Origin: Clostridiales bacterium | GTDB lineage: Bacteria; Bacillota; Clostridia; Peptostreptococcales; Anaerovoracaceae | Direction of reading: 5' to 3' | DNA length: 54,317 nucleotides | NCBI GenBank assembly: GCA_022775805.1 | Contig: JALFKB010000024.1 | Span: 1-54,317, forward strand | Shown: positions 1,072 through 21,248 of the stretch, piece by piece | Position numbering within the stretch: position 1 is the first letter of the stretch | Layout of the letters: each line of letters begins with the position of its first letter | Program-made: the position numbers and the translations under genes | The notes under the pieces: generated by a model | Databases searched by the model: none | What the model saw: only the letters and a program-made list of their open reading frames with translations | What the model was told of the DNA's origin: nothing

Positions 1072-1373
1072 ATTTAAGTTGCAGTAACTTGCAACAATCC
1101 TAATAAGTAGTATTGTTTAAATGCATCGTGAGACTCAGAACCCTTGAAAATGCATGGGTCTAGAGCAAAGGTTAACCATCAAATGGTGGCTATATATTGA
1201 AAATTAACTTGCAGTAAGTTGCAGCTGTGCTGATATTTACTGCTTACATGATTGTGAATATAGGATTTGATACTTAAGACTTGCCTTGCCTACTTACCAA
1301 AGTAAGAGGGCAAGGCGCAAGAATTATTCCGTTGAATCGTAAATAAAAGCAAATGCTTTGGAGAGGTGATGAA

Positions 1374-2438
1374 ATGAGTTTCCCACAAAAAGTTGCAGAT
1401 GAGGTCCTTGTTCGCTGTGGAAGGCATTGCTGTCTTTGTGGTAGGTATGCAGGTGGGAAAATAGAACTTCATCATATAAAGCAAGTTGCTGATGGCGGTG
1501 AGGATACTGCAGATAATTGCATTCCCCTATGTCTCGATTGCCATGCAGAAGTTAAAGCATATGATCCACGTCATCCAAAAGGAAGAAAGTTTTCTGAAGC
1601 AGAGCTAAAAGGACATAGAGATAGGTGTTATGCTAAATATGGGGTAAGCGTTGAAATTAATGTGGCTCCTGAAGAAGCCGAAGAGTCTGTTGCAAAATGG
1701 TTTTCTAAATATGAAAATCCTCAAAGACTTCAAATAACATGGGGCTTCTCGGATGTGGATAAAGCTTGCCCTTTGTTTCCGGGGACGATTGCGCTTGTTG
1801 CGGGGTATACTTCTGCTGGAAAAAGCATTTATGTACAGCAAGCGATGTTAAAAAATATGGCAAGAAGAAATAAGGTATTATATTTTCACTTGAAAGATAG
1901 TGCTGATGCAATAATAAATAGTATTATTGCTATAGAATCGTTGACAAACCTTGAAAACATTCAAAGTCAGTTATTAACTGAAAAAGATTGGAGCAGAATA
2001 TCAAATGCATTAAATAGTATCAATTTTGATTGTCTGAAGCTGGTGCCTTTCAATTTGAATTCTTCTGTGAAAGAGGAAATAATAGTAGCTTTAGAGAAAA
2101 GTAATGCAGAATTGATTGTAATAGATGACATCAATGCACTAAATTTACAGGATAACAATAGTGTCGAAGAATTCTTTTACAAATTAAAAAGGTTAGCATC
2201 TCAGACAAATACAACAGTTCTTATCATTACGAATGTTACACAAAACCATAACCGCATAGATCAACGACCTATGATACAGGACATACAATACGAGGCATTA
2301 TACCGTATGTGTGATATAGTACAGTTTATCTATCGAGGTGAATACGATTATTATGATTCTCAAGCGGAAAATCGAATCGAAGTCATCACCGTAAAAAAGC
2401 CGGGTCAAATAATGCTAGAACCGTGGAGCTTAAAATAA
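1374..2438 (+). CDS. HNH endonuclease domain fused to RecA/DnaB_C-like P-loop ATPase
   Basis: N-terminal CGRHCCLCGRYAGGKIELHHIKQVADGGEDTADNCIPLCLDCHAEV (HNH with CxxC pairs); Walker A GYTSAGKSI; Walker B AELIVIDDI; DnaB-like TVLIITNVTQN and VQFIYRGEYD. RBS GGAGAGGTG precedes ATG 1374; the ORF-track start at 1353 lies upstream of that RBS. Confidence 0.8.
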   Translation: MSFPQKVADEVLVRCGRHCCLCGRYAGGKIELHHIKQVADGGEDTADNCIPLCLDCHAEVKAYDPRHPKGRKFSEAELKGHRDRCYAKYGVSVEINVAPEEAEESVAKWFSKYENPQRLQITWGFSDVDKACPLFPGTIALVAGYTSAGKSIYVQQAMLKNMARRNKVLYFHLKDSADAIINSIIAIESLTNLENIQSQLLTEKDWSRISNALNSINFDCLKLVPFNLNSSVKEEIIVALEKSNAELIVIDDINALNLQDNNSVEEFFYKLKRLASQTNTTVLIITNVTQNHNRIDQRPMIQDIQYEALYRMCDIVQFIYRGEYDYYDSQAENRIEVITVKKPGQIMLEPWSLK

Positions 2439-2859: not shown

Positions 2860-3000
2860 TTGGCGTTATTCTTGTTGGCAGGATTCTCATTGCCAGGCTC
2901 ACGAGCCAGCAAGGCTTCCAGCCGGCAGACATCCTAATCAGCAGACACACTCGCCTGCAGGGATTGTTATGCCTTCTTCCACTGCCCGCCTGCCCAGGAT

Positions 3001-3254
3001 GTTGAAGCAATGGAGGTTTTCAAAGCATCTGCTTCAACAGCTATAGAATTTTAGGCCCTACAAGCGACCTTTTTAGGGGTCGGGTTGAAGCATCCTCAGG
3101 TATCAGCAAAGTTGCTTCAACAAAATCCGGAAAAAGTTGAAGCAATTAAAAGCATGAAGGCAGTGCTTCAAAAACTGGAAAAATTTAGGCGATAAATCGA
3201 CTGTTTTTTTGGGCCGTGTTGAAGCAAATTTGACTATTATCTGATTGCTTCAAC
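3001..3254 (+). repeat. Four-hairpin repeat element, copy 1
   Basis: Units 3001-3038, 3084-3121, 3136-3172, 3218-3254, each GTTGAAGCA(A)-N-(T)TGCTTCAA(C/A), separated by 45, 14 and 45 nt. Confidence 0.85.
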
Positions 3255-3607
3255 ATCAGCTTGAGAATGCATATAGGGCAACTAAGCAAGCGGCTTTATG
3301 GAAGCTATAGCTGCGGCAACAATGGGCTGATGCTACATCAAGATGAGTTTCTCAGACCTACTAATCACGAACTTTTTCCAGCCGGCTCGGGAAATGTTGA
3401 AATTGCAACCTTCCATTTTTTCGTGATTATGGCGATTATTCGCAGCTAAAACTCAGTCGTGAAGTTTCGCAAAACTCCCAAGCACGGCCAGGGCCGCAAA
3501 CCTCGAACAATAACAAATTTGCGGTTTTTGCGCGAAAAAAGAGTGGTTTCATGCTGTAATACAGGGGTTTTCAGGCATAACACAGCAAACTAATATAGAA
3601 AAAGCCC

Positions 3608-20600: not shown

Positions 20601-20666
20601 AAGGAGCTGCTCCGCAGCTCCTTTGTTCTTATGAACGGGCAGCTCCGCAGCTCCTTTGTTCTTATG
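20601..20666 (+). terminator. Leu-operon terminator hairpin with tandem 33-nt-period duplication
   Basis: AAGGAGCTGC-TCC-GCAGCTCCTTTG; GC[T/A]GCTCCGCAGCTCCTTTGTTCTTATG at 20606-20633 and 20639-20666. Confidence 0.7.
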
Positions 20667-20855: not shown

Positions 20856-20891
20856 GCCATTTATAAGAAAAGTCTGCCCAGCGGCGCAAAT

Positions 20892-21143
20892 GTTGAAGCA
20901 ATCAAAGAAAATCCCAATTTGCTTCAAACTTGCCCGCTTAAGACCCTGTTATATCGCCTAAAATTTTCCAATTGTTGTAAATATCTTTAGCAAGAAATAA
21001 TTGCTTCAACAATTCTTCGATTTTGTTGAAGCAATTTTTCGGGATGGGCAAATGCTTCAAATTGACCTCTTAAAAGAGCCTGTTTCTGGCCTCAAAATCC
21101 ATGGATGTTGAAGCAAATAAGAAAAAACTGCAATAACTTCAAC
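20892..21143 (-). repeat. Four-hairpin repeat element, copy 2 (inverted relative to copy 1)
   Basis: Units 20892-20928, 20974-21010, 21025-21061, 21107-21143; gaps 45, 14, 45. The reverse complement aligns collinearly with 3001-3254. Confidence 0.85.
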
Positions 21144-21248
21144 ATGCAGCCAGGGGTGCAAACAGTGAAAAAATAAGGAAAAAACATTGGAGGAGGTGTA
21201 TTATACAAGGGAAGGCAAGGATAAGAATGAGAGGAGGGTGATTTGGAC

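What the first reader, a model, noticed from the sequence alone, without database searches (positions are those of the whole stretch)
3001..3254. Undescribed four-hairpin non-coding element with fixed 45/14/45 spacing (copy 1)
Four 37-38 bp units (3001-3038, 3084-3121, 3136-3172, 3218-3254), each bounded by GTTGAAGCA(A) and (T)TGCTTCAA(C/A) with unrelated 17-20 nt centres. Inter-unit gaps are 45, 14 and 45 nt. The 45-nt gaps share an ATTTTAGGC-type core, and one contains a CGACC...GGTCG hairpin. Conserved arms and spacing with variable loops imply selection on structure or protein binding rather than on coding. The architecture does not match CRISPR, REP/BIME or a standard MITE. Candidate roles are a structured ncRNA, a multi-site binding array or a mobile repeat.
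Basis: seen in the sequence. Interest (0 to 1): 0.85.

Follow-up and report, generated by a model that had tools for sequence, protein, structure and literature searches.

The report
Helically phased palindrome arrays between genes
The four-hairpin element is one of about 28 copies of a dispersed intergenic DNA repeat whose mirror-image half-sites sit at fixed distances equal to whole turns of the double helix, and related bacteria carry many families of the same design with different half-site sequences, which points to an undescribed kind of protein-binding DNA array.

Summary
Copy 1 (3001-3254) has eight GTTGAAGCA-type arms forming four 37-38 bp palindromes, with gaps of 45, 14 and 45. Copy 2 is at 20890-21145 on the minus strand. 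The host MAG (1.49 Mb) holds about 28 copies, nearly all intergenic, with identical geometry. Centres and spacers have drifted to 51-59% pairwise identity, while six arms stay 94% identical. The stems do not covary and Rfam gives no match, so an RNA reading is weak. There is no target-site duplication and no RAYT transposase. An unbiased array finder showed that this is a class. Six species of the genus carry 17 or more arm families (GTTGAAGCA, TTTGAGGCA, GTTGCAGAT, TTGTCACG, ATTCCTTA and others), up to nine in one genome. Units are 36-42 bp and geometry is family-specific. Unit-to-unit distances fall on whole helical turns: the best modulus is 10.55 bp (Rayleigh p about 2e-10), and a small partly held-out set agreed (p = 6e-4). 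Four families show spacing variants, each of 10 bp. Best reading: double-stranded DNA arrays that bind a family-specific protein on one helix face and disperse as non-autonomous elements. The protein, the means of dispersal and any host role are unknown.

The parts
2999..3256 (+). Copy 1, whole array including terminal AT...AT
3001..3038 (+). Unit 1, 38 bp palindrome (arms 3001-3009 and 3030-3038)
3039..3083 (.). 45-bp spacer 1; holds a small GC-rich palindrome CGACC..GGTCG
3084..3121 (+). Unit 2, 38 bp palindrome
3122..3135 (.). 14-bp central spacer (AAAATCNNAAAATT type)
3136..3172 (+). Unit 3, 37 bp palindrome; the right arm (arm 6) is degenerate in most other copies
3173..3217 (.). 45-bp spacer 2 with the conserved AATTGGAAAAATTTAGGCGATAA block and a small GC-rich palindrome
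3218..3254 (+). Unit 4, 37 bp palindrome; a solo unit 95% identical lies at G000:C106:3323-3359
20890..21145 (-). Copy 2, whole array (units at 20892-20928, 20974-21010, 21025-21061, 21107-21143)

Best explanation
The element is a non-coding platform on double-stranded DNA. Each 36-42 bp palindrome is probably bound by one dimer (or higher oligomer) of a sequence-specific protein that reads the 8-12 bp arms. The roughly 20-bp centre serves as a length-fixed bridge. The palindromes are spaced by whole helical turns so that all bound dimers lie on one face and can assemble together. Each family has its own arm code, and so presumably its own protein. Arrays spread to new intergenic sites as non-autonomous elements and are kept intact in arm sequence and geometry. 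SHOWN: the arrays, copy number, conservation pattern, helical quantisation, many families, gain at a new site (leuD-leuB in one relative). INFERRED: protein binding, co-assembly on one face, one protein per family. UNKNOWN: the protein, the mobilising enzyme, and whether the host benefits.
For: About 28 copies with arm starts at 0, 28, 82, 110, 133, 161, 215, 243. Six arms 94% identical pairwise while centres are 51% and 45-bp spacers 59%; 1179 substitutions outside those arms in 20 copies that fit the fixed frame; the only in-frame indels seen in other full copies are three +1 bp changes (copy 1 twice, C80) and one -10 bp (C97). Same geometry with other arms in same-genus species: G031 TTTGAGGCA 28/82/23/28/54; G044 GTTGCAGAT. 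Unbiased finder: many families, 0 arrays in Markov shuffles. Periods 40, 52, 62, 73, 83, 94, 105, 115, 126, 136, 146; best modulus 10.55 bp in a 6-21 scan, p about 2e-10; partly held-out set p = 6e-4. Within-family spacing variants of 10 bp in four families. Two array pairs with unrelated flanks align over 261 and 265 bp with 43 and 21 mismatches and no gap. Arrays are intergenic (7% ORF-covered vs 86% for random placement). G021 has an array filling a 315-bp leuD-leuB gap that is mostly 4-40 bp in 28 relatives.
Against: No binding protein or mobilising enzyme was identified: no transposase-like paralogue family in 400 kb of G044 or 264 kb of G000, and no Y1 transposase in G000, G029 or G031. 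No positional link to promoters or to any gene type. Families and spacings are partly related by descent, so the phasing p-values overstate independence. The 20 copies used for the substitution count were chosen by fixed frame, which biases against indels. The small spacer palindromes show weak covariation, which would also suit an RNA.
Confidence: 0.62

Rival explanations
1. Purely selfish non-autonomous transposons (MITE- or REPIN-like): the arms are recombinase sites, the geometry is that of a transpososome, and the host gains nothing.
For: Dispersed copies with unrelated flanks; near-identical pairs; gain at leuD-leuB in G021; palindromic ends ATGTTGAAG...CTTCAACAT.
Against: No target-site duplication beyond a possible AT; no autonomous partner and no transposase-like paralogues; no Y1/RAYT gene in G000, G029, G031; old, strongly diverged copies keep exact geometry.
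Confidence: 0.25
2. Structured non-coding RNA with four hairpins, or RNA hairpins in untranslated regions.
For: Stems of 9-12 bp; GC-rich mini-hairpins in both spacers fold better than shuffled sequence and show weak covariation.
Against: Alifold finds only two stems and a covariation term of +0.23, i.e. none; arms 6 and 8 diverge without compensation; spacing follows the DNA helical repeat; no consistent orientation to flanking genes; no Rfam match.
Confidence: 0.07
3. Clustered operators: each arm family is the regulon of one transcription factor with several cooperative palindromic sites, as in the lambda operators.
For: Phased palindromes with one arm code per family are typical of cooperative repressor sites (established knowledge); some arrays lie between divergent genes (C94b, C125, C130).
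Against: Many arrays lie between convergent genes (C6, C80, L165) or within tandem gene pairs; neighbouring genes share no function.
Confidence: 0.12

Closest known systems
REP / BIME / REPIN elements with RAYT (TnpA-REP) transposases
   Same: Intergenic, dispersed, species-specific palindromic units in alternating orientation; several families per genome; BIMEs bind proteins (PMC2817692, PMC3733652, PMC3116915)
   Different: No GTAG or CGTC tag; 19-25 nt centres instead of mostly 2-5 nt loops; fixed geometry quantised to helical turns; no Y1 transposase in G000, G029 or G031
MITEs
   Same: Short, non-coding, dispersed, inverted ends, no ORF
   Different: No target-site duplication; internal array of identical palindromes with conserved spacing; no partner transposase found
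Plasmid partition sites, iterons and phage operator arrays (for example sopC, lambda OR; from general knowledge)
   Same: Several palindromic protein sites, often helically phased
   Different: Those are one or a few loci with a cognate gene nearby; these are dozens of chromosomal copies with no cognate gene seen
Serine-recombinase res sites (from general knowledge)
   Same: Several inverted-repeat subsites with arms of about 9-12 bp and phased spacing
   Different: No recombinase gene adjacent; dispersed in dozens of intergenic sites; unit length constant within a family

Membership tests
REP/BIME/REPIN | GTAG or CGTC tag at one end of each palindrome | tested here: not met
   Unit consensus ATGTTGAAGCAATT...AATTGCTTCAACAT has no such tag; definition from PMC3733652
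REP/BIME/REPIN | Short-loop stem-loop unit | tested here: not met
   Centres 19-25 nt in all families, against 2-5 nt in most REPs (GTAG range 2-20)
REP/BIME/REPIN | Cognate RAYT (Y1 transposase, PF01797) in the genome | tested here: not met
   0 matches in G000 (94% complete), G029 and G031; G044 and G008 have distant or broken ones
MITE | Terminal inverted repeats | tested here: met
   Palindromic units at both ends; 2998-3011 and 3244-3257 are 14-nt perfect inverted repeats
MITE | Target-site duplication | tested here: not met
   No excess of flanking direct repeats of 2-10 nt over mismatched pairs; AT at both ends could be part of the element
MITE | Autonomous transposon with the same ends | tested here: inconclusive
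   None seen; no transposase-like paralogues in the stretches held, but only part of each genome was read
Structured ncRNA | Covarying stems | tested here: not met
   Covariation term +0.23; 1 of 19 predicted pairs with a double change; weak covariation only in spacer mini-hairpins
Structured ncRNA | Match to a described family | tested here: not met
   No Rfam hit to any array at gathering threshold; only chance hits below it
CRISPR | Direct repeats separated by unique spacers | tested here: not met
   Arms alternate in orientation and spacer lengths alternate 45/14/45
Protein-binding array on dsDNA | Sites spaced by whole helical turns | tested here: met
   Best modulus 10.55 bp, R = 0.88, p about 2e-10; partly held-out p = 6e-4
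Protein-binding array on dsDNA | A protein that binds the arms | not testable with these tools
   Needs pull-down, EMSA or ChIP

The most novel reading that the evidence does not exclude
These arrays form a dedicated chromosomal scaffold. A rapidly diversifying set of DNA-binding proteins, one per arm code, polymerises on helically phased palindromes at dozens of intergenic sites and bridges or partitions the chromosome, a nucleoprotein system of a kind not described before.
Probability: 0.25. Interest if true: 0.92.

Novelty: categorically new. Interest (0 to 1): 0.78.

Why it matters
A repeat class with a readable code (arm sequence) and a measurable geometry (whole helical turns), present in up to nine families per genome, implies a matching set of unknown DNA-binding or mobilising proteins in uncultured gut Bacillota. 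Each array is a ready bait for finding its protein, and the whole-turn versus half-turn prediction can be tested directly. It also shows that very regular DNA architecture can go unnoticed when repeat searches rely on sequence identity rather than on geometry.

Tried and rejected
Rfam at gathering and relaxed thresholds: no match. Consensus folding: no covariation in the arms. Target-site duplications: none. Coding origin: U2-U3 reads as FEA..LLQQ..VEA..LQQLEKFRR* in some copies, but others have stops and units are not in one frame, so dropped. RAYT/REPIN link: Y1 transposase absent from G000, G029, G031. Viral origin: no match in IMG/VR to three patterns. Conserved gene neighbours: none. Multi-copy transposase-like genes: none. 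A shared spacer motif CAAAGGCTG in G044 proved to be a genome-wide oligomer, not an array part. Downstream of leuB the relatives are not syntenic, so no clean empty site for copy 2. A covariance model of the core found true copies only in G000, G026 and G297; most of the weak hits I looked at were chance, but two led to the other families.

Full report
OBSERVATION. The arms are far beyond chance (37 matches within one mismatch in the window, 16.5 expected, 0 of 100 shuffles). A second copy lies at 20890-21145 on the minus strand. The window is contig C42 of a 1.49-Mb, 139-contig, 94%-complete genome. Named records with the same core are two MAGs titled 'Bacillota bacterium'. Contig C106 carries what looks to me like a six-cysteine (SCIFF) peptide gene next to its radical-SAM maturase, typical of Clostridia (recognised from memory).

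FAMILY IN THIS GENOME. Pattern, BLAST and model searches give about 28 copies. In register, full copies share arm starts 0+, 28-, 82+, 110-, 133+, 161-, 215+, 243-. The element runs from ATGTTGAAG to CTTCAACAT, about 256 bp. Arms 6 and 8 are usually a second type (GTTGTAAAT). The halves U1-45-U2 and U3-45-U4 resemble each other as direct repeats. Among 20 full copies the six strong arms are 94% identical pairwise, centres 51%, 45-bp spacers 59%, against 28% expected from composition; 1179 substitutions lie outside the strong arms. These 20 were chosen because they fit a fixed frame, so they cannot show indels. The copies set aside show three single-base insertions (copy 1 twice, C80 once), one 10-bp deletion (C97), and truncations such as C21, C79 and C19. 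Copies are intergenic (7% covered by ORFs of 100 aa or more, 86% for random placement), with no shared neighbour function and all gene orientations.

WHAT THE STRUCTURE SAYS. RNAalifold on 23 copies finds only two stems and no covariation. Arms 6 and 8 change without their partners. Rfam is silent. The only RNA-like signal is a small GC-rich hairpin in each 45-bp spacer.

A CLASS, NOT ONE FAMILY. Weak model hits in same-genus species led to arrays with other arms. G031 has TTTGAGGCA with the identical 28/82/23/28/54 spacing. G044 has GTTGCAGAT with spacers of 45 or 55 bp. A geometry scan and then an unbiased array finder that assumes neither arm sequence nor period found in G044 alone TTGTCACG (five arrays; the finder reports 52/73/52/52 or 53/73/52 for four, and the fifth has the same arm spacing), ATTCCTTA (94/62, twice), TTTCTGCG (73-74 repeats), TTCGAGAT (95/73), CCTACCAT, CTCTGCCA, TGTGAGAG and TTTGTACA. 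G029 has CTGACAAA, TTGTCCAT and TGTATCTA; G031 also TCTACACA and CGGTGGAC; G008 ACTATACC; G021 TTGACGAA. Markov shuffles of the same sequences gave none. Stretches of 36-100 kb from G003, G036, G017, G004, G022 and G030 gave none, and the sampled genomes outside the genus gave one low-complexity false hit in 180 kb, so the class is patchy. Units are 36-42 bp, almost constant within each family.

HELICAL PHASING. Unit-to-unit distances across families are 40, 51-54, 62-64, 71-74, 82-84, 92-95, 105, 115-116, 126, 136 and 146. Scanning moduli from 6 to 21 bp, the best is 10.55 bp (R = 0.88; Rayleigh p about 2e-10 with related geometries counted once; unique values only, p = 3e-6). Six values collected afterwards agree with the phase (p = 6e-4); some of these come from families already in the first set, so they are only partly independent. 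Four families show within-family spacing variants, and in each the change is 10 bp: G000 82 to 72, GTTGCAGAT 82 to 92, CCTACCAT 146 to 136, CTGACAAA 115 to 105. Such quantisation is expected when proteins bound to double-stranded DNA must face the same side; I know of no RNA explanation.

DISPERSAL. Two near-identical array pairs in G044 have unrelated flanks and align without a gap (261 bp, 43 mismatches; 265 bp, 21 mismatches). In G021 an array fills a 315-bp leuD-leuB junction that is 4-40 bp in most of 28 relatives. So arrays are gained at new sites. No target-site duplication, no RAYT in G000, G029 or G031, and no transposase-like paralogues in the stretches held. Window copy 1 has a partner at C106 where a single unit (95% identical to unit 4) stands next to the same flank, consistent with deletion between unit 1 and unit 4.

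LIMITS. No binding protein or mobilising enzyme is identified. Phasing values are partly related by descent. Only part of each relative was read. The arrays in G026 and G297 sit on short contigs (6.2 and 4.8 kb) and may be mis-binned; G026 LeuB is only 61% identical to that of G000. The literature search was limited to open-access full text and found nothing with this architecture; the closest is REP/BIME, whose defining tag and loop size are not met and whose transposase is absent from G000. I rate the class categorically new on architecture; a reader who counts all interspersed palindromic repeats as one kind would call it a new variant.

Noticed in passing
window 4083, 6180, 7176 and 19 more sites; genus-wide: A 9-mer GCAAAGGCA occurs 22 times in the window (0.8 expected). 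The core GCAAAGGC is strongly over-represented in several species of the genus with species-specific extensions (G044 CAAAGGCTG 225 times in 400 kb, G003 CAAAGGCAACG), resembling DNA-uptake-sequence dialects, which I know only from Neisseriaceae and Pasteurellaceae.
   Followed up: partly
window 3362-3430; L073 2981-3219; L065 4105-4338; L072 246-484; L080 3219-3451; L081 1033-1288: A second dispersed palindromic repeat with ends AATCACGAA...TTCGTGATT, full length about 240 bp, often 50-100 bp from a copy of the main array.
   Followed up: partly
L073 3323-3359 (G000:C106): A solo unit, 95% identical to window unit 4, next to sequence homologous to the right flank of window copy 1: a natural one-unit allele.
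   Followed up: partly
L060 3460-3754 (G000:C21) and L079 4220-4336 (G000:C134): An insertion element that looks like the IS256 family by its transposase N-terminus (recognised from memory) interrupts an array copy in C21; a similar end lies next to a truncated copy in C134.
   Followed up: no
window 1353-2438: A 361-aa ORF combining an N-terminal HNH nuclease match with a DnaB helicase C-terminal domain; possibly a broken intein-bearing dnaB.
   Followed up: no
window 20605-20665: A direct duplication of about 30 bp (CAGCTCCGCAGCTCCTTTGTTCTTATG) beside copy 2.
   Followed up: no
L267 2578-2886 (G029) and L265 2601-2805 (G021): Arrays of two other families lie directly downstream of leuB in G029 and between leuD and leuB in G021.
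   Followed up: yes
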